From contig LNDO01000083.1 of assembly GCA_001465025.1 (NCBI GenBank), positions 40,301 to 104,300 of the forward strand: DNA of 64,000 bases, written 5' to 3'. The notes under the pieces are model-generated. The model was given only the letters and a program-made list of their open reading frames with translations. It made no database searches and was not told where the DNA came from. This document shows positions 55,306-64,000 of this stretch, in pieces. Position 1 is the stretch's first letter; the number at the start of each line of letters is the position of its first letter. This stretch comes from Pseudomonas sp. Ga0074129. Its GTDB lineage: Bacteria > Pseudomonadota > Gammaproteobacteria > Pseudomonadales > Pseudomonadaceae. Both the position numbers and the translations under genes were made by a program.

Positions 55306-55322
55306 TTTAACGGCGAAAAAAG
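55306..55322. repeat. Right copy of 17-base flanking repeat
   Basis: TTTAACGGCGAAAAAAG, one mismatch from the copy at 55195-55211. It includes the last codons and stop of pxpC in reverse. Confidence 0.6.
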
Positions 55323-56209
55323 CGGTAGAAATCACCCAGATCAGCCTGCGCGTCGCTGATGCTGACCGCGGTGAAGCGCAGCGGATGGTGCGCCGGGCAC
55401 TGCGCCAAACGACTTTGGTCGAGCGGATGCAGCCAACCGAGCAGCGGATAACCGCCCATGGTCTGGTGATCAGCTTGCAGGATGATTGGCTGCCCGTCCG
55501 GCGGCACCTGAATAGCCCCGCGAGTAACCCCCAACGACCACTGCCGCTTAGGCGGGGTGAGCGGCTCGCCGAGCAAACGCGCCCCCATGCGATCCGTTTG
55601 CGGGCTGAGCTGCCAGATTTGAGCAAAAAAGCCCTGCACCTGATCTTCACTAAAACTCACCGCGTCACCGCCGGTAATCACCCGCAGCAGCGGCGTACGG
55701 CGGTAATCCGGCAAGTAAGGCCAAGGCACGCTGGCGGCATTACTGAAGGCGGCGGGACGACAGGCGAGGTCATCGCCCGCTTGCAACGCACGCCCGATGC
55801 CTTCTCGCAACTGCACACTGACACTGCCCAGTACAGGCGTGGCGAAAAATCCGCCAGCAACCGCCAAATAGGCATACTGACCACTGCGCGCAAACCCCAC
55901 ATTTAAACGCTGCCCCTTACGCAGCGGCAGGCGCGTCCACAGCGGCTGCGGCTGTGCATCGACACTGAGCGACACCTGCGCGCCACACAGCGCAAACCAG
56001 GTGTCGACCTCGGCCAGCAACTCGACGCCGCCCAGGGCCATTTCCAACAACGGCGTGCCCCACGGGTTATCCAGCAGCCGATTGGCCCAAGCCGCCGCAT
56101 GCCCATCCAGCGGCCCGGAGGGCGATACGCCGAGGTGCTGCCAACCGCGTCGCCCGGCGTCCTGCAAGATGCTCTGCGGCCCCGGTTTGAGCACCCGCAA
56201 ACCACTCAC
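55307..56209 (-). CDS. pxpC: 5-oxoprolinase subunit PxpC (biotin-dependent carboxyltransferase family)
   Basis: 300 aa. It starts GLRVLKPGPQSILQDAGRRG with VSPSGPLDGHAAAWANRLLD, the known PxpC/KipA signature. PxpABC hydrolyses 5-oxoproline to glutamate with ATP. Its start overlaps the pxpB stop (ATGA). The 3' end lies in the 17-base repeat beside lnt. Confidence 0.93.
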   Translation of the reverse strand: MSGLRVLKPGPQSILQDAGRRGWQHLGVSPSGPLDGHAAAWANRLLDNPWGTPLLEMALGGVELLAEVDTWFALCGAQVSLSVDAQPQPLWTRLPLRKGQRLNVGFARSGQYAYLAVAGGFFATPVLGSVSVQLREGIGRALQAGDDLACRPAAFSNAASVPWPYLPDYRRTPLLRVITGGDAVSFSEDQVQGFFAQIWQLSPQTDRMGARLLGEPLTPPKRQWSLGVTRGAIQVPPDGQPIILQADHQTMGGYPLLGWLHPLDQSRLAQCPAHHPLRFTAVSISDAQADLGDFYRFFRR

Positions 56210-56883
56210 AGCAGGCCACCTTCAGCGATAAAATCGTGCTCGCCAATCGACCGAAAGCGCACCCGATCAGCCAGCGCCAGCGGGCTCGGCGGCGTTCGCT
56301 CAAGGTCAAACAGCCGCCAAGGGCAGCGTCCGATCAGGTGCCAGCCACCGGGCGAGCATTGCGGATAAATAGCCGTCTGCCGTTCGGCAATCGCCAGGCT
56401 TCCGGCGGGTACGGCCGTGCGCGGGGTGGCGCGACGCGGCAGGGCCAAACGTGGATCAAGTTCACCTAGATAGGCAAAACCGGGGGCAAAACCAATCGCC
56501 CCAACGCGATACTCAATCGCCGCATGCAACTCGATCACCTGGGTCGCGCTCAGGCGACATAAGCGCGCCACCTCGCCGAGGTCTTCGCCGTTATACAAAA
56601 TAGGGATTTCATACAGACGACCGCCGTGCGCGGACAGCGGCTCGCTTAGCCAGCGCTCAAGCAAGGGAGTGAGCCGCTCAGCCAGCTCACGATGATTGGT
56701 ACGCAGCAGGTCGTAATGCAGCAGCAGGCTGGTCCAGCCCGGCACCAGATCGGTAAGCAACTCACCCATCTCGTCGCGTATGTGCTCGGCCAGCACAGCG
56801 ATGCGCAGTGGCAACTGCTCGTCCGGCTGCTCCGCCAGCACCAGCAACAAGGCTTCGGCACCGGCAGGTTCAAGGAGTATCAC
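56206..56883 (-). CDS. pxpB: 5-oxoprolinase subunit PxpB
   Basis: 225 aa, KipI-like. It has [20 protein letters not shown] and [20 protein letters not shown] with [20 protein letters not shown], the conserved core of this subunit. Overlaps pxpA and pxpC by 4 bases each. Confidence 0.93.
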
Positions 56884-57623
56884 AAGGCGTCCAAGCTGGC
56901 CCGCAAACGCCGCAGCACCGCCAGAGCATCGGCGTTATCACCGTGCACACACAGGCTGTCGGCGCGCAGTTGCAGCGGCTGGCCGTCGATATCGGCAAAC
57001 GGCTCGCCTTGGGCGATGGCCAAAGCCTGCTGGAGAATCCGCTGCGGATCATGGTGCACCGCGCCGCTCAGACGTCGGGGAGCCAACTGACCATCAGCCA
57101 GGTAAGCGCGGTCAGCAAAGGCCTCAAAGATCAACGGCACACCCGCCGCCTGCCCCAATTGCCGCTCGCGGCTGTTGTCGGCCAACGCCAACACCATCAG
57201 GGGTAAGCCCTCGCGGTAACTGGCGCAGGCCATCAACACGGCATTAAACAGCGCATCGTCACGCACCAGATCGTTGTACAGCGCACCATGCGGTTTGACG
57301 TACGCCACCTCAGTGCCGGCCGCCCGACAAAAAGCATCCAGCGCGCCGAGCTGGTACAGCACCAGCGCCGTCACCTCCTCGGCTGAGCAGGCGATGTGCC
57401 GCCGACCGAAACCGAGCAAATCGGGGTACGCCGGGTGCGCCCCAATGCTCACCCCATGCTGCACCGCCAGAGCGACGGTGCGTTGCATGGTCAGCGGGTC
57501 GGAAGCATGAAAGCCGCAGGCCAGATTGGCTTGATCCACCAGCGGCATGGCATGCGCGTCATCGCCCATGCGCCACACGCCGAAGCTTTCACCCATGTCG
57601 CAGTTCAGTCGGATTTTATTCAT
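56880..57623 (-). CDS. pxpA: 5-oxoprolinase subunit PxpA (LamB/YcsF family)
   Basis: 247 aa. It begins [20 protein letters not shown] with [20 protein letters not shown] and [20 protein letters not shown], the LamB/YcsF pattern. First gene of pxpABC here; no separate regulator beside it. Divergent from the TonB receptor gene 230 bases away. Confidence 0.94.
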
Positions 57624-57796: not shown

Positions 57797-57816
57797 CTTA
57801 TTTGCAATTCATTACC
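57797..57816. promoter_or_regulatory. Possible Fur box before the TonB receptor
   Basis: CTTATTTGCAATTCATTACC lies about 40 bases before the receptor ATG. Its 19-base core matches the Fur consensus GATAATGATAATCATTATC at about 10 of 19 positions, mainly in the right part (CATTACC). This is weak, but the place is right for iron regulation. Confidence 0.3.
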
Positions 57817-57855
57817 ATGCGCCACTGTTTTCTCAATACACCAGTGGAGCCTCGA

Positions 57856-60096
57856 ATGCCCTTTTCCTGCAAACGCACCGCGCTTGCCAGCGCAGTAACA
57901 CTTGCAAGCGCCCTTATGGCCAGTGCAGCCGCGCATGCCAACGACACCATCACCCTGCAGGATGTAGTGGTCAGCGCCTCTGGCTTTGAACAGAAGATTA
58001 CCGATGCGCCTGCAAGTATCAGTGTGATTAGCCGCGAAGATTTGCAACAGAAACGCTACAACAACCTGGCCCAGGCGCTGGGCGACGTAGAAGGTATCGA
58101 CATTGGCCAGGGAACGGGTAAGACCGGCGGCCTGAACATCAGCATTCGCGGCATGCCCAGCCAATACACCCTGATTTTGATTGACGGTCGTCGACAGAAT
58201 GCCGCTGGTAACGTCACCCCGAACGGCTTCGGCGAAACCTCGACGAGCTTTATGCCGCCGCTGTCGGCAATCGAGCGCATTGAAGTCATTCGTGGCCCGA
58301 TGTCCACTCTTTATGGCTCCGATGCAATGGGCGGGGTGATCAACATCATCACCCGCAAGGTGGCCAAAGAATGGAACGGCTCACTGACACAAGATTACAC
58401 CTACCAAGAAAACCGAGACTTCGGCGACACCCGTAACACCAGCATCTACGCCAGCGGCCCACTGATCGACGGTTTGCTTGGTCTGCAAGTACGCGGCAGC
58501 CTCTTTGACCGTAACGAGTCAGACCTGAGCTACGGCGACGGCACCGAGGTCAGCAAGCGCGGTCCCTCACCCGTCGATGGCAGCAACAACACAGTGGGCG
58601 CGCGCCTGACTTTGACGCCGCACGCCGATCACGACTTTGGACTGGATGTGGAGCGTGGCCGTCAAGCCTACAACAACGACGAATGCCAACTCGGAACCCT
58701 CGACGGACTAAACCGTACCTGTACGGCCAGCGCGACAACCGCTAACGGCTATGCCGATGAGCTGCGCGTTGAGCGTGAGCAGATTGCCCTAACCCATACC
58801 GCTCGGCTGGGCTTTGGCACCTTGGATTCCAGCTTGATGCACAACACTACCGAAACCATTGGACGCACTATCCCCGGTAATGTGATCGGCAACAGTGCGG
58901 GCATCCCCGGCACCTTGATTGGCGATGACCGAGATCTGGAAACTACCAATCTGGTGTTTGATACCAAACTAGTAGCGCCAATTGGCGAATCCCATGTCGG
59001 CACTATTGGCGGCCAGTGGTGGCAAGCCGAAATGACCGACGGCATTGCCTTGGATGATTTCGAGCAAAAAACCTGGGCTGTATTTGCCGAGGACGAATGG
59101 CGCCTGCGTGACGACCTGGCACTGACTTTGGGCGCACGCTACGACGACCATGAAACGTTCGGCGGCCACATCAGCCCGCGTGCTTACCTGGTGTGGAACA
59201 CCACTGATAACTGGACACTCAAAGGCGGGGTCAGTCGCGGTTATCGCACACCTGATCTGAACGACCTGCACAGCGGCGTCAATGGCATCACTGGCCAGGG
59301 GACTATTATCACTATCGGGAACCCTGACCTCGAACCAGAAACCACCACCAGTACTGAGTTTGGTATGTACTTTGACAGCCTGTCGGGCTTCAAGGCCAAT
59401 GCCACGCTGTTCCACAACACATTCAAGGATAAGATCGCGAGCGGCGACCCCGTCACAGATCCTCTATGCGCGGGCAACGCTGGCGGCACCTGCTCGCAAC
59501 AGATCAATATCGACGAAGCGGTCACCCAAGGCCTGGAACTTGCCGGTAGCTGGACCTTGGCACCCGCCTGGACCCTCAGCGCCAATTACACCTTTACCGA
59601 CAGCGAACAGAAAAGCGGCGACAACCAGGGTGAACCGCTGACAAACACACCTGAGCACCTGGCCAACGCCAAGCTCAATTGGCAGACCACCGAACGCCTC
59701 AACCTGTGGCTTAAGAGCGAATACCGTGGCGAACGTGCACGTTTCACGTCCAGCTACGAGAATCTAGCCAACACTAACGGCACCTACTCCACCAACCAAT
59801 CGATCTACGACACCTTGGGTAAGCACACCAGCGCTTACACCCTGTTCCATCTTGGGGGCTCATTCAAGGCGACGGAGAACCTGACGCTCAATGCTGCCCT
59901 CTACAACCTGCTGGACAAAGACTTTGTTAACGGCAAGGCCTATACCACCTACACCACCCCAAACAACGCCGGTAACGGCGGCGGCGTAGCAAACGGCACG
60001 GCTTACGGCACTGACTATATGCAGAGCGGCGCCTCCACCACAGGCACTCTGGAAGAAGGCCGCCGCCTCTGGCTGTCCGCCAACCTGACATTCTGA
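57856..60096 (+). CDS. TonB-dependent receptor, CirA-like
   Basis: 746 aa from MPFSCKRTALASAVTL, with signal cleavage after AAAHA. A TonB-box-like TLQDVVVSA follows, then the plug (SISVISREDLQQKRYNNLAQ, RGPMSTLYGSDAMGGVINII) and a 22-strand-type barrel that ends LWLSANLTF with a terminal Phe. Much of the text (ASGPLIDGLLGLQVRGSL, EDEWRLRDDLALTLGARYDD) resembles E. coli CirA, a catecholate siderophore receptor. The longer frame from 57802 adds 18 residues. First gene of the probable metal-uptake locus. Confidence 0.9.
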   Translation: MPFSCKRTALASAVTLASALMASAAAHANDTITLQDVVVSASGFEQKITDAPASISVISREDLQQKRYNNLAQALGDVEGIDIGQGTGKTGGLNISIRGMPSQYTLILIDGRRQNAAGNVTPNGFGETSTSFMPPLSAIERIEVIRGPMSTLYGSDAMGGVINIITRKVAKEWNGSLTQDYTYQENRDFGDTRNTSIYASGPLIDGLLGLQVRGSLFDRNESDLSYGDGTEVSKRGPSPVDGSNNTVGARLTLTPHADHDFGLDVERGRQAYNNDECQLGTLDGLNRTCTASATTANGYADELRVEREQIALTHTARLGFGTLDSSLMHNTTETIGRTIPGNVIGNSAGIPGTLIGDDRDLETTNLVFDTKLVAPIGESHVGTIGGQWWQAEMTDGIALDDFEQKTWAVFAEDEWRLRDDLALTLGARYDDHETFGGHISPRAYLVWNTTDNWTLKGGVSRGYRTPDLNDLHSGVNGITGQGTIITIGNPDLEPETTTSTEFGMYFDSLSGFKANATLFHNTFKDKIASGDPVTDPLCAGNAGGTCSQQINIDEAVTQGLELAGSWTLAPAWTLSANYTFTDSEQKSGDNQGEPLTNTPEHLANAKLNWQTTERLNLWLKSEYRGERARFTSSYENLANTNGTYSTNQSIYDTLGKHTSAYTLFHLGGSFKATENLTLNAALYNLLDKDFVNGKAYTTYTTPNNAGNGGGVANGTAYGTDYMQSGASTTGTLEEGRRLWLSANLTF

Positions 60097-60232
60097 GTGA
60101 TTTGCTCGGCGGCTCGCATAACGCAGGCCGCCGAACAAACAGGAATGTATATTGTTTGTAAATAATCCCAACTCTCATTAAAAGCCCACTAAAATCTCGC
60201 CTCATTCTCGCAACAGCCCTCAAGACTTCTCT

Positions 60233-60832
60233 ATGCCTCACTCCTTCTGGCTCGGCACCTTGCGCCAATGGCACTGGATCAGCTCGGCCTTATGCCTGGC
60301 TGGCATGCTGTTATTTGCCGTTACCGGCATCACCCTCAACCACGCCGCGCAGATCGAGGCCAAGCCGCAGGTCACCACTCGTCTCGCGCAAATGCCCGAG
60401 CCGCTGCAGGCCTCGCTGCACGACAAGATGCCGACACAGGGCCTGCCTTTGGCGCTGCGCCAATGGTTGGAAGCGGAGCTTTCGATTCGCTTGGATGGCC
60501 GCGACGCCGAGTGGCCGGATGGCGAGTTGTATATCGGCCTACCGCGCCCGGGTGGCGATGCGTGGCTAAGCCTGGATGTCGAGTCTGGCGCACTGGAATA
60601 CGAGTCCACCGACCGGGGCTGGATCGCCTACCTAAATGACCTGCACAAAGGTCGCAATACCGGCACGGTCTGGTTCTGGTTTATCGATGTATTTGCCGTG
60701 TTGTGCGTGGTGTTCAGCCTCAGCGGCTTGCTGCTGCTGCAACGCTACGCCGGCAATCGCCCAAGCACCTGGCCGATGGTGGGCTTGGGGCTGGTACTGC
60801 CTGTGCTGTTGGCTTTGCTGTTTATTCACTAA
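60233..60832 (+). CDS. PepSY-associated membrane protein
   Basis: 199 aa. An N-terminal span (WISSALCLAGMLLFAVTGIT) ending in LNHA, a periplasmic PepSY-like domain (ELYIGLPRPGGDAWLSLDVE, GALEYESTDRGWIAYLNDLH) and two C-terminal spans (FIDVFAVLCVVFSLSGLLLL; GLGLVLPVLLALLFIH). Such proteins are thought to carry electrons across the membrane in ferric reductases. Here the flavin reductase part is on a separate gene 1.4 kb downstream. Confidence 0.85.
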   Translation: MPHSFWLGTLRQWHWISSALCLAGMLLFAVTGITLNHAAQIEAKPQVTTRLAQMPEPLQASLHDKMPTQGLPLALRQWLEAELSIRLDGRDAEWPDGELYIGLPRPGGDAWLSLDVESGALEYESTDRGWIAYLNDLHKGRNTGTVWFWFIDVFAVLCVVFSLSGLLLLQRYAGNRPSTWPMVGLGLVLPVLLALLFIH

Positions 60833-60842
60833 GGACACTGTT

Positions 60843-61355
60843 ATGCCCAAACGCTTTCTGCTGCCCCTGTTCGCCCTGTTAAGCGCGCCCGTTCTGGCTG
60901 CCGAGATGCAGCTTGAGGTGGAAATACCGCGCCTGCAGGTGGCTGAGTATCACCGCCCTTACGTGGCCATCTGGCTGGAGCAACCAGACCAGAAACACGT
61001 CGCCAACCTGGCTGTGTGGTACGACCAAAAGCTCAAGGATAAAGAAGGCGAAAAATGGCTCAAGGACCTGCGCCAGTGGTGGCGACGCAGCGGCCGCAGC
61101 CTGCAAATGCCGATTGATGGCGTCAGCGGCGCAACCCGCGCCGTGGGTAACCAACAGTTGAGCTTCAACAGTGCCGATGCGCCGCTCAAACAACTCGCAC
61201 CCGGCGACTACAGCCTAGTGGTTGAGGCGGTGCGTGAAGTGGGCGGCCGCGAACTGCTGCGCTTGCCGTTCACCTGGCCGCCGCAGAAAACCGTCAGCCA
61301 CAGCGCCCAGGGCAGCACCGAACTGGGTCAGATCAACCTGCAACTCAAGCCCTGA
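60843..61355 (+). CDS. DUF2271 periplasmic protein
   Basis: 170 aa. Signal peptide (LLPLFALLSAPVLAAEM) and then RPYVAIWLEQPDQKHVANLA and WYDQKLKDKEGEKWLKDLRQ with DGVSGATRAVG, which I recall as DUF2271. The family often accompanies PepSY and flavin-transfer genes; function unknown. 10 bases after the PepSY gene. Confidence 0.82.
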   Translation: MPKRFLLPLFALLSAPVLAAEMQLEVEIPRLQVAEYHRPYVAIWLEQPDQKHVANLAVWYDQKLKDKEGEKWLKDLRQWWRRSGRSLQMPIDGVSGATRAVGNQQLSFNSADAPLKQLAPGDYSLVVEAVREVGGRELLRLPFTWPPQKTVSHSAQGSTELGQINLQLKP

Positions 61356-61378
61356 CACTTCACTTAAGGAAGCCTGCC

Positions 61379-62254
61379 ATGCACCCACTCGTAAAATGGA
61401 CCGCCCTAACCCTGGCCATCTGCCTGCCGCTATCCGCCCAAGCGCACCGCGCCTGGATGCTGCCATCGGCCACCGTATTGTCCGGTGAAGACCCGTGGAT
61501 CACCGTGGATGCTGCAGTGTCCAATGACCTGTTCTACTTCGAGCACTTCCCGCTGCGTATTCAGGGCATCGGCAATCTCGACACCACGCCTGCTGGCGGC
61601 CCACCGGGCATGCGCCCACGTCCGGCTGCCGTGCTGCAACTGTTCGCCCCGGATGGCAGCGCCGCCCAAGCCGAGAACGGCAGCATCGGTCGCTACCGCA
61701 GCACCTTCGATTTGCACCTGACGCAGAAAGGCACCTACAAACTGGCCATCGCCAACAGCGGCCTGTTCGCCAGCTGGAAAGAAGGCAAGGAAAACAAGCG
61801 CTGGATGGGCAAGGCCGAAGACTTCGCCAAGCAAGTACCCGCCAACGCCGCCGAGCTGAAAGTGGCGCAGAACAACAGCCGCATGGAAGTCTTCGTCACG
61901 TCCGGCAACCCAACGGATACCGTGCTGAAAACCACCGGCGTAGGCCTGGAGCTGGCCCCCATCACTCACCCCAACGACCTGTTCGCCGGTGAAGCGGCTG
62001 AGTTCACCCTGCTGCTCGACGGCAAACCGGCTGCTGGCGTGGAAGTCAACGTGATCCCCGGCGGCAACCGCTACCGCGACGAGCTGGGTGACATTAAAAC
62101 CACCAGCGCCGCCGACGGCACCATCAGCATCACCTGGCCGAGCGCCGGCATGTATTGGCTCGAAGCCGAGCTGAGCAGCAAAGATGGCGTCGTAGCCCCG
62201 GCAACCGAACGCCGCGCCAGCTACAGCGCCACCCTGGAAGTGCTCGCCCCCTGA
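61379..62254 (+). CDS. DUF4198 periplasmic protein
   Basis: 291 aa. Signal peptide (LALTLAICLPLSAQAHRAWML-like start), then HRAWMLPSATVLSGEDPWIT with a conserved His at the mature N-terminus, and a C-terminal Ig-like domain (GVEVNVIPGGNRYRDELGDI). DUF4198/NikM-like proteins occur in metal-uptake loci. The stop TGA overlaps an ATG (TGATG) that was probably the start of the next gene. Confidence 0.82.
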   Translation: MHPLVKWTALTLAICLPLSAQAHRAWMLPSATVLSGEDPWITVDAAVSNDLFYFEHFPLRIQGIGNLDTTPAGGPPGMRPRPAAVLQLFAPDGSAAQAENGSIGRYRSTFDLHLTQKGTYKLAIANSGLFASWKEGKENKRWMGKAEDFAKQVPANAAELKVAQNNSRMEVFVTSGNPTDTVLKTTGVGLELAPITHPNDLFAGEAAEFTLLLDGKPAAGVEVNVIPGGNRYRDELGDIKTTSAADGTISITWPSAGMYWLEAELSSKDGVVAPATERRASYSATLEVLAP

Positions 62255-62260
62255 TGCACC

Positions 62261-62322
62261 CGTAGCCCGGATGCAATCCGGGGGATCAATTGCCGCCATC
62301 CCCGGATTGCATCCGGGCTACG
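62261..62322. repeat. Perfect palindromic repeat at the start of the flavoreductase gene
   Basis: Two perfect 23-base arms (62261-62283 and 62300-62322) with a 16-base centre, beginning CGTAGCCCGGATGCAATCCG. This is a typical pseudomonad GTAGCCCGGATG palindrome. It supplies the only in-frame ATG of the downstream gene (62271) and separates it from an older-looking start at 62254. Confidence 0.85.
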
Positions 62323-63914
62323 CCATCCAACCTAAAGCCGGTCTACTCGCATTGCTCGCCTTTCCCGCGCTTCACCCCTCTCTACGCCGCTGGCCACTGC
62401 CGATCTGCCTGCTACTGGCTGGCCTGTTGTTGTGGCTGCATCCGCCGCGCGAACTCAGCGCAGCCCTAATCGTCATCACCTATCTGGCCCTGTGCCTGCA
62501 CTACTGCTGGCCACAGCGCCGCCCATTGCTCGGCCAACACGGCGAACTGCTGATCGGCTACGCCAGTCAGGGCGGTCAAGCCCAAGATGTCGCCGAGCGC
62601 AGCTGTGCGCAATTGCTGGCCAGTGGCGTGCCCGCGCGCTGCATCGCCCTCAATCAACTGAGTCGCGCCGAACTGCAAACGCTTGATCGCCTACTGCTGG
62701 TGGTCAGCACCTACGGGGACGGCGAAACCCCGGACAACGCCGCACGCTTCGAGCACAGCCTGCTTGAACAACCGCCACTGCCACAGTTGCGCTACGCCAT
62801 CTTGGCCTTGGGCGACAGCCGTTATGCGCAATTCTGCGCCTTTGGCCTGCGCCTGCAACAACGCCTGCACACACTCAAAGCGCAGCCGCTGTTCGACCTG
62901 TTGCAAGTCGATTGCCTGGACGCCGGCACCCTACGCCACTGGCAACAACAGCTTGGCCACCTCAGCGGCAACAGCGATTTTGTCGACTGGCAACCGGCGC
63001 ACTATCGCCCTTGGCAACTGACGCAGCGCCAGTGCCTGAACCCCGGCAGCATCGGCGCACCGATCTATCACCTGCGCCTAAACAGCCCGGAGGCCGTGGA
63101 CTGGTGCGCGGGGGATATCGTCGAAATCGGCCCACGCCATGCTTCGCAGCGCGTCATCGACTGCCTGCAACAGCTCGACCTTGATCCGCAGCAGCGCCTG
63201 GCTGACGGCCAATGCCTGAGCGATGCAGTCAGTGCGCGTCACCTGCCCAGCCGGGGGCCAGATAAACAAAGCCTCGAATCCTGGCTCGCGACATTGACGC
63301 CGCTGCCGCACCGCGAATACTCCATCGCCTCCAGCCACGCCAGCGGCGCGCTCGATTTATTGGTGCGCTTGCAGCACCAGGCGGACGGTCGCCCTGGGTT
63401 GGGTTCGGGCTGGCTATGCCAACATGCCGACGTGAACAGCGCAATCGACCTGCGCATCCGGCATAACCCCGGCTTCCATGGCCCGGATGCCGATACACCG
63501 CTGATCCTGATCGGCAGTGGCAGCGGGCTGGCCGGTCTGCGGGCGCACCTGCAAGAGCGCGCCACTCATCCGCACTCACGCAACTGGCTGTTGTTTGGCG
63601 AACGCCATGCCGCCCACGATGCGTTGCTAAATGACGAGCTGAGCGCCTGGCAACACAGCGGCCACCTCGAACGCCTGGACCTCACCTACTCACGCGACGG
63701 CCATCCGCAGCGCTATGTACAAGATGCCCTGCATGCTGCCGCCAGCACCTTGCACACCTGGCTGGCCGACGGCGCGGCTATTTATGTATGCGGCAGCCTC
63801 GACGGCATGGGCCGCGATGTGGACGTTTGTCTGCGGCAACTGTTGGGAGATGAATACGTTGATGCGCTGAGTCAGGCGGGACGCTATCGGCGGGATCTTT
63901 ATGGCTATGTCTGA
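62271..63914 (+). CDS. Membrane flavodoxin/NADPH-flavin reductase (CysJ-like), start disrupted by repeat
   Basis: 547 aa from the ATG inside the palindrome; the first 20 residues are repeat-encoded. Two or three hydrophobic segments (LPICLLLAGLLLWLHPP; AALIVITYLALCLHYCW) precede a flavodoxin domain (GELLIGYASQGGQAQDVAER, STYGDGETPDNAARFE, ALGDSRYAQFCAFG), an FAD domain (REYSIASS, GLGSGWL) and an NADPH domain (LIGSGSGLAGLRAHLQE, YVCGSLDGMGRDVD). It resembles the reductase half of PiuB-like proteins. The ribosome site is poor; a TTG at 62352 or translation coupled to DUF4198 are alternatives. Confidence 0.8.
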   Translation: MQSGGSIAAIPGLHPGYAIQPKAGLLALLAFPALHPSLRRWPLPICLLLAGLLLWLHPPRELSAALIVITYLALCLHYCWPQRRPLLGQHGELLIGYASQGGQAQDVAERSCAQLLASGVPARCIALNQLSRAELQTLDRLLLVVSTYGDGETPDNAARFEHSLLEQPPLPQLRYAILALGDSRYAQFCAFGLRLQQRLHTLKAQPLFDLLQVDCLDAGTLRHWQQQLGHLSGNSDFVDWQPAHYRPWQLTQRQCLNPGSIGAPIYHLRLNSPEAVDWCAGDIVEIGPRHASQRVIDCLQQLDLDPQQRLADGQCLSDAVSARHLPSRGPDKQSLESWLATLTPLPHREYSIASSHASGALDLLVRLQHQADGRPGLGSGWLCQHADVNSAIDLRIRHNPGFHGPDADTPLILIGSGSGLAGLRAHLQERATHPHSRNWLLFGERHAAHDALLNDELSAWQHSGHLERLDLTYSRDGHPQRYVQDALHAAASTLHTWLADGAAIYVCGSLDGMGRDVDVCLRQLLGDEYVDALSQAGRYRRDLYGYV

Positions 63915-64000
63915 GTTAACTGTTGCCGCTCGTATAACCCAGCGATTCACTCAGGCAGATCAATGGGTTGAGCTGCGCTTTGTAGCGCTCAAGCAGGCGC
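63907..64000 (+). CDS. Unknown gene, cut by the window edge
   Basis: An ATG overlapping the end of the flavoreductase gene opens a frame for 31 codons to the edge (MSELTVAARITQRFTQADQW). In related loci the next gene is often an FAD:protein FMN transferase (ApbE), but these residues alone do not show this. Confidence 0.4.
   Translation, partial: MSELTVAARITQRFTQADQWVELRFVALKQA

What the first reader, a model, noticed from the sequence alone, without database searches (positions are those of the whole stretch)
57797..64000. Receptor plus split membrane flavoreductase with two unknown periplasmic proteins
A CirA-like TonB receptor, a PepSY membrane protein, DUF2271, DUF4198 and a membrane flavodoxin/FAD/NADPH reductase follow one another, with small gaps and a further gene at the edge. 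PiuB-type ferric reductases carry PepSY and flavodoxin-reductase parts in one protein; here they are on separate genes with two secreted proteins between. This suggests an uptake system in which the metal chelate is reduced in the periplasm, with DUF2271 and DUF4198 as electron or metal carriers. The roles of both DUFs are unproven.
Basis: partly seen in the sequence, partly recalled or inferred. Interest (0 to 1): 0.7.

Follow-up and report, generated by a model that had tools for sequence, protein, structure and literature searches.

The report
Flavin-heme metal-reductase operon beside receptor
A Pseudomonas chromosome carries a known type of gene set predicted to push electrons out of the cell to free iron from its carriers; it is a new member of a described family, with two unusual points: its flavin-attaching enzyme is not found in the operon, and it has its own conserved promoter signal.

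Summary
The five genes are real: a CirA/CfrA-like TonB receptor, a 3-helix PepSY protein, DUF2271, DUF4198 and a membrane flavodoxin/NADP reductase. The last four form a tight operon whose order recurs in related loci: the first three in 58 of 58, the reductase in 56. This is the published 'PepSY-like' flavinylation cluster (PMC8238504), as in Caulobacter CC_3059-3063. The DUF2271 acceptor threonine is kept in 59 of 59, four PepSY histidines are near-invariant, and DUF4198 begins, after its signal peptide, with a histidine in 59 of 59, as in a crystallised Ni-binding relative.

Corrections: the split architecture is not new; no ApbE follows in the nearest relative; the receptor is probably a separate unit behind a hairpin.

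New details: ApbE is absent from 36 of 36 loci of the Pseudomonas/Stutzerimonas clade but present in 22 of 22 others. All 36 genomes have an ApbE elsewhere, beside nqrF in 30 of 30 checked. A conserved 21-base promoter element precedes PepSY in 34 of 37.

Metal, electron order and importer remain inferred; no structure model could be made.

The parts
57859..60096 (+). TonB-dependent outer-membrane receptor, CirA/CfrA-like (catecholate siderophore receptor family); ligand unproven; probably its own transcription unit
   Evidence: Pfam plug and barrel; best solved relatives CirA 2hdf E 1.4e-95, then PirA/PfeA/FepA; NCBIfam CirA, CfrA, PRK13486 hits all below cut-off; same family directly upstream of PepSY in 25 of 58 loci, 0.85-1.23 kb upstream in 8 more
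60101..60139 (+). Hairpin between receptor and PepSY, terminator-like but without a T tail
   Evidence: 13-nt arms 92% complementary; -24.1 kcal/mol, z -4.05; hairpins of other sequence in the same gap in 4 of 4 related loci folded. The terminator scan did not list it.
60143..60163 (+). Conserved promoter element GAATGTATnnTnTTnGTAAAT (TGTAT-N6-TGTAA, 11-base step), regulator unknown
   Evidence: within 3 mismatches in 34 of 37 loci of the clade (window included), 0 of 22 others, 1 hit elsewhere in 1.96 million positions; in the own genome two further hits, each with 3 mismatches, against 2 for the reversed pattern; alignment
60233..60832 (+). PepSY_TM_like_2 protein, three predicted membrane helices, four near-invariant His (14, 37, 138, 199): predicted b-haem transmembrane electron carrier
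60843..61355 (+). DUF2271, secreted, flavinylation motif DGVSGATR: predicted covalent-FMN electron carrier
   Evidence: flavinylation of a homologue in PMC8238504
61379..62254 (+). DUF4198, secreted, mature N-terminal His (AQA|HRAW): predicted periplasmic metal-binding protein
   Evidence: Ni-binding relative in PMC12537917
62271..63914 (+). Flavodoxin/FAD/NADP reductase (CysJ/P450-reductase type) with a predicted membrane segment (61-80): predicted cytoplasmic electron donor

Best explanation
This is a PepSY-like, flavinylation-dependent extracytoplasmic metal reductase, most likely for iron. Inferred chain: NADPH reduces the membrane-anchored FAD/FMN reductase in the cytoplasm; electrons cross the membrane through b-haems held by the conserved histidines of the 3-helix PepSY protein (possibly as a dimer); they pass to the covalent FMN on DUF2271 in the periplasm, which (or PepSY itself) reduces a ferric chelate. 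DUF4198 binds the released divalent metal, or a metal close to it, through its N-terminal histidine and hands it on. The receptor next door brings in a catecholate-type ferric chelate in this species but is a separate unit. FMN is put on DUF2271 in trans by the ApbE encoded beside nqrF, or by the ApbE of the second (fused) system on contig C64. Shown here: gene content, order, motifs, absence of ApbE from the operon in this clade, presence of an ApbE elsewhere. Inferred: redox activity, direction, metal, trans flavinylation and the role of DUF4198. Unknown: the ferrous importer (no FeoB or FTR1 found in this genome).
For: Gene order in 58 of 58 loci, reductase in 56 of 58. Acceptor Thr100 of DUF2271 in 59 of 59; full [ST]GA[ST] motif in 52 of 59, the other seven SAAT or SSAT. 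PepSY His14, 37, 138, 199 in 58, 59, 59, 57 of 59. DUF4198 His23 59 of 59, His56 55, His197 58. Reductase resembles CysJ and P450 reductase. ApbE in 36 of 36 clade genomes whose operon lacks it, next to NqrF in 30 of 30 ApbE loci returned and in the own genome. Published: homologue flavinylated; PepSY-like clusters with DUF2271 and DUF4198; the Caulobacter operon is Fur-regulated and its mutants lose fitness in EDTA; induction in iron-limited Alteromonas.
Against: No expression or biochemistry from this lineage was found. No clear Fur box at the window: best matches 11 of 19 before receptor and PepSY, no better than chance. The promoter element is not a Fur box. The DUF4198 with measured metal preference favours Ni over Zn, Co and Cu, and the word iron does not occur in that paper's main text. 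A PepSY_TM protein of another subfamily is tied to copper. In Caulobacter two of these genes also appear in a zur-mutant expression table. No FeoB and no FTR1 in this genome, so the fate of Fe(II) is open. The PepSY profile finds no solved haem reductase by sequence, and no structure could be predicted.
Confidence: 0.62

Rival explanations
1. The same electron chain serves another metal: nickel, zinc or copper uptake, or copper delivery to oxidases, with DUF4198 as the specific metal carrier.
For: A DUF4198 protein binds Ni at 18 nM and the family has nickel-linked neighbours; the PepSY_TM protein CrpH supports copper oxidases; two Caulobacter genes of the operon change in a zur mutant; no Fur box is evident at the window.
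Against: Published operons of this kind respond to iron and Fur; the neighbouring receptor is closest to CirA/PfeA/FepA-type iron receptors; Ni and Zn need no reduction for uptake (general knowledge).
Confidence: 0.2
2. DUF2271 is not flavinylated in this clade: with ApbE gone from the operon it is only a structural or metal-site partner, and PepSY reduces the chelate directly as in FoxB-type reductases.
For: ApbE is missing from the operon in 36 of 36 loci of the clade; six DUF2271 of the clade, and one outside it that does have ApbE, carry SAAT or SSAT instead of SGAT.
Against: The acceptor Thr is kept in 59 of 59; an ApbE exists elsewhere in all 36 genomes. A wider count, 19 of 19 relatives with DUF2271 having ApbE against 79 of 96 without (one-sided Fisher p 0.036), says little: it ignores kinship, and most of the 19 have a fused-type DUF2271, a type that can carry its own ApbE.
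Confidence: 0.12
3. The system repairs or matures redox proteins in the periplasm (in the manner of MsrPQ) rather than reducing nutrient metals.
For: PepSY-like and MsrQ-like cores are structurally alike and share clusters.
Against: Published regulation is by iron; the four operon genes leave gaps of 10-23 bases with no further client gene between them.
Confidence: 0.06

Closest known systems
PepSY-like flavinylation-associated gene clusters (Meheust et al. 2021, PMC8238504)
   Same: 3-helix PepSY, DUF2271 with the ApbE motif and secreted DUF4198; iron link proposed there
   Different: Those clusters frequently include ApbE; here it is absent from the operon throughout the clade sampled
Caulobacter crescentus CC_3059-3063 / CCNA_03155-03159 (PMC3751524, PMC12004947)
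   Same: CC_3059 'transporter' (a PepSY-family protein in PMC12004947), DUF2271, DUF4198, ApbE and a separate flavoreductase; Fur regulated; EDTA fitness
   Different: ApbE lies inside the cluster; no receptor is listed in it. A Caulobacter control genome has FeoB, this genome does not
Fused system of the same genome, contig C64 (L004:5861-9461)
   Same: DUF2271 + PepSY_TM + flavodoxin/NAD reductase + ApbE
   Different: PepSY and reductase in one 734-aa protein, own ApbE, no DUF4198 match in the 16 kb read
FoxB and other PepSY_TM ferrisiderophore reductases (as described in PMC13038864)
   Same: Conserved membrane His, periplasmic PepSY part, receptor context
   Different: FoxB has two PepSY domains and ligates two haems alone; here three helices; no match of the PepSY profile in the PDB
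IsDUF4198, Ni-binding protein of Ideonella sakaiensis (PMC12537917)
   Same: DUF4198 family, mature N-terminal His
   Different: Nickel context there, redox operon here; the counterpart of its His18 was not identified

Membership tests
PepSY-like flavinylation cluster (PMC8238504) | PepSY-like gene (PF03929 or PF16357), three membrane helices | tested here: met
   PF16357 E 5.2e-84; three hydrophobic segments 15-38, 142-174, 177-199
PepSY-like flavinylation cluster (PMC8238504) | ApbE-substrate domain with [S/T]GA[S/T] motif | tested here: met
   DGVSGATR in the window; motif in 52 of 59 by regex, acceptor Thr in 59 of 59
PepSY-like flavinylation cluster (PMC8238504) | ApbE in the cluster (frequent, not required) | tested here: not met
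   0 of 36 loci of the clade, against 22 of 22 other loci; the window's own contig ends after the reductase. Outside these 58: L152 (same order, other family) also lacks it, L153 has it
PepSY-like flavinylation cluster (PMC8238504) | covalent FMN on DUF2271 | not testable with these tools
   needs biochemistry
PepSY_TM haem reductase (FoxB type) | conserved membrane-face His pairs for two haems | tested here: inconclusive
   His14 58/59, His37 59/59, His138 59/59, His199 57/59; by topology one cytoplasmic and three periplasmic, so pairing is unclear; structure prediction was never accepted
PepSY_TM haem reductase (FoxB type) | sequence relation to a solved reductase | tested here: not met
   profile of 33 sequences finds no PDB chain at E up to 5; a fold comparison could not be run
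DUF4198 N-terminal-His metal protein (IsDUF4198) | His as first residue after the signal peptide | tested here: met
   H23 59 of 59; A-x-A just before it in 56 of 59 by regex (not L054, L082, L084). Cleavage itself was not predicted by a program
DUF4198 N-terminal-His metal protein (IsDUF4198) | second His ligand (His18 of IsDUF4198) | tested here: inconclusive
   H56 55/59 and H197 58/59 are candidates; 9GCB was not among the hits of the profile, and I did not check that the PDB copy holds it
PiuB-type fused reductase | PepSY and flavodoxin reductase in one protein | tested here: not met
   separate genes here; the fused type is on C64 of the same genome
CirA-type catecholate receptor | NCBIfam curated cut-off | tested here: not met
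   CirA 366 of 745 bits, CfrA 550 of 1200, PRK13486 697 of 924; nearest solved chain CirA

The most novel reading that the evidence does not exclude
In the Pseudomonas/Stutzerimonas clade the operon has become dependent on a flavin transferase that belongs to another machine: the ApbE of the sodium-pumping NADH dehydrogenase (NQR), usually the only one in the genome, flavinylates DUF2271 in trans, so that maturation of a respiratory pump and of a metal-reduction pathway share one enzyme. In the same clade the operon came under a dedicated, possibly OmpR-family, regulator through the 21-base element, in place of the Fur-like sites seen in Herbaspirillum.
Probability: 0.4. Interest if true: 0.5.

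Novelty: new member of a known kind. Interest (0 to 1): 0.36.

Why it matters
The operon type is known but has little biochemistry. This clade offers a clean test, because the presumed modifying enzyme is separated from its substrate and single-copy in 33 of 36 genomes: deleting one apbE gene would show whether DUF2271 needs covalent flavin. The conserved promoter element gives a handle for finding the regulator, and so the metal or stress the system answers to. The fused and split systems side by side in one genome allow direct comparison.

Tried and rejected
Rejected: (1) the split architecture as a new invention: Caulobacter already has it. (2) ApbE just past the window edge: the contig ends, and the nearest relative has a convergent decarboxylase-like gene there. 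(3) Lack of FeoB as a special trait of operon carriers: 36 of 37 carriers of the clade lack it (the exception is the genome of L054, Azotobacter vinelandii) against 2 of 11 other carriers tested (11 of 22 were given to the call), but all 19 matches among 115 relatives are marked 'same order' and none 'same genus', so it is a genus background. (4) A Fur box at the window: matches to a recalled 19-base consensus reach 11 of 19, as common by chance. Herbaspirillum PepSY promoters reach 12-14 of 19 at a similar place, but control stretches of the same loci also reach 13-14, so this is suggestive only. (5) A regulon for the promoter element: in the own genome the two other hits have 3 mismatches each and the reversed pattern also gives 2; among 115 relatives there are 39 hits within two mismatches against 32 for the reversed pattern, and the only two with none (own genome, G069) are at this operon. 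In two more distant genomes of the genus (L148, L149) the element before PepSY is absent or has 3 mismatches. (6) Structures by sequence: PepSY and DUF2271 profiles found no meaningful PDB relative; DUF4198 found a weak match to chains labelled phosphoribosylglycinamide formyltransferase (E 7.5e-5), not followed up.

Literature: searches for NQR-linked ApbE with DUF2271 and for this operon in Stutzerimonas (0 papers; 3 listed) showed no title or abstract on it; the ApbE review PMC12052999 does not contain the word DUF2271 in its main text (passages). Only these searches of open papers stand behind any 'not in print'.

Limits of the sample: the clade called Pseudomonas/Stutzerimonas has 36 loci, one of them (L031) labelled only Gammaproteobacteria; L028, L041 and L060 are short on one or both sides; two unnamed relatives (G042, G069) appear to be the same genomes as the loci L032 and L035.
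Full report
What is there. The window is the last 64 kb of contig C83 of a 4.0-Mb genome, by its nearest loci a Pseudomonas. From 57859 to 63914 five genes run on the + strand: a TonB receptor, PepSY_TM_like_2, DUF2271, DUF4198 and a flavodoxin/NAD-binding reductase. The last four are 10, 23 and 16 bases apart; the receptor ends 136 bases before PepSY. In that gap lie a hairpin (z -4.05) and a conserved promoter element, so the receptor is probably a separate unit. Hairpins of other sequence lie in the same gap in four of four related loci folded (z -3.0 to -5.7). The terminator scan did not list the window hairpin; no T tail follows it.

Conservation. A scan of genome contigs with DUF2271 gave 58 loci. 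In all 58, PepSY, DUF2271 and DUF4198 follow each other on one strand; a reductase match follows in 56 (none in L081 and L082; cut by the contig end in L077). The loci were chosen by closeness to the window's DUF2271, so they are not a random sample of the family. They fall into 36 of the Pseudomonas/Stutzerimonas clade (with Azotobacter; L031 is labelled only Gammaproteobacteria) and 22 others (Herbaspirillum, Variovorax, Lysobacter and three alphaproteobacteria). A receptor of the window's family lies directly upstream in 25 of 58, all in the clade, and 0.85-1.23 kb upstream on the same strand in 8 more, seven of them Herbaspirillum. The receptor link is therefore common but not tight.

ApbE. 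The flavin transferase ApbE follows DUF4198 in all 22 loci outside the clade, and no ApbE match lies in the held stretch of any of the 36 inside it (three of these stretches are short on a side). The window itself cannot speak for what follows its reductase. On a tree of the four concatenated proteins the absence is one change with SH-aLRT 100 (which also warns of long branches). Loss is the likely direction, since alpha-, beta- and one gammaproteobacterial locus, and Caulobacter, have ApbE. It is not strictly one event for the order: of two further loci from other families of the order, L152 also lacks ApbE and L153 has it. All 36 clade genomes have an ApbE elsewhere, 33 of them only one; 30 of the 39 ApbE matches were returned as loci, and all 30 sit beside NqrF. 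The own genome has two: one beside NqrF on C39 and one in a second system on C64. Across 115 relatives, all 19 genomes with DUF2271 have ApbE against 79 of 96 without. This says little, because kinship is ignored and most of the 19 have a fused-type DUF2271, a type that can carry its own ApbE.

Motifs. DUF2271 keeps its acceptor threonine in 59 of 59 sequences; the full [ST]GA[ST] motif fits 52, and seven have SAAT or SSAT, one of these in an ApbE-bearing locus. A homologue with this motif was shown to be flavinylated by its ApbE, and the modification was lost on Thr-to-Ala (PMC8238504, passages). PepSY has His14, 37, 138 and 199 in 58, 59, 59 and 57 of 59. By its three hydrophobic segments, and if the PepSY part is periplasmic as in the family, one His is cytoplasmic and three are periplasmic; haem pairing is unclear and a dimer is possible (inference). 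DUF4198 has His23, the expected first mature residue, in 59 of 59, with His56 in 55 and His197 in 58; an A-x-A site stands before it in 56. A DUF4198 crystal structure binds Ni through the N-terminal His and one further His (PMC12537917, one section read). The reductase resembles CysJ and P450 reductase.

Promoter. Upstream of PepSY in the clade, an element GAATGTATnnTnTTnGTAAAT is followed at a near-constant distance by a -10-like TAGAAT. It fits with at most 3 mismatches in 34 of 37 loci, window included: L041 has almost no upstream DNA, L032 has 4 mismatches and L056 has 5. It fits in 0 of 22 other loci, with 1 hit elsewhere in 1.96 million positions of these loci. The own genome has no second site within two mismatches. 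The 11-base step of TGTAT and TGTAA resembles tandem sites of OmpR-family regulators; that comparison is from memory, and no regulator was identified. In many clade receptors the upstream DNA shows a TATCAT core that looks Fur-like; the window has only a weak version.

How it works. Published work on this gene set supports iron: the Caulobacter operon is strongly induced by iron limitation or loss of Fur (PMC3751524, passages), its mutants lose fitness in EDTA (PMC12004947, passages), and DUF4198/DUF2271 genes rise in iron-limited Alteromonas (PMC7190382, passages). The likely chain is NADPH, reductase FAD/FMN, PepSY haem, DUF2271 FMN, ferric chelate, with DUF4198 as metal binder. Points against: the metal preference known for a DUF4198 is nickel; a PepSY_TM relative serves copper enzymes (PMC13038864, passages); two Caulobacter genes of the operon also appear in a zur-mutant table (PMC4176598, passage); the window has no convincing Fur box; and the genome has neither FeoB nor FTR1. 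FeoB absence is general to the genus sample.

Verdict. A real, conserved system, and a member of a described kind. The useful additions are the clade-wide absence of ApbE with a trans candidate, and the dedicated promoter element.

Noticed in passing
L004:5861-9461 (own genome, contig C64): A second, fused version of the system: DUF2271 (TGAS motif), a 734-aa PepSY_TM-flavodoxin-NAD reductase and ApbE.
   Followed up: partly
window 60143-60163 and upstream of PepSY in 33 other loci of the clade: Conserved 21-base promoter element with an 11-base direct repeat and no known regulator.
   Followed up: partly
window 55307-57623 (- strand): A three-gene set LamB/YcsF, CT_C_D and CT_A_B (the make-up of 5-oxoprolinase PxpABC, name recalled) diverges from the receptor; a LamB/YcsF gene also lies upstream of the operon in several related loci.
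   Followed up: no
L030:4606-7152 (-) and L054:775-3129 (-): Long ORFs with a second match to the reductase lie about 0.2 and 4.3 kb upstream of the operon on the other strand.
   Followed up: no
L008 (own genome, contig C113:8363-8941, -): A second, more distant DUF4198 gene (E 2.0e-16), on a contig without a DUF2271 match.
   Followed up: no
L080:8105-10120: Two DUF4198 matches in a row in the Neoroseomonas operon.
   Followed up: no
L081 and L082: Operons with PepSY, DUF2271, DUF4198 and ApbE but no reductase match in the held stretch; the electron donor there is unclear.
   Followed up: no
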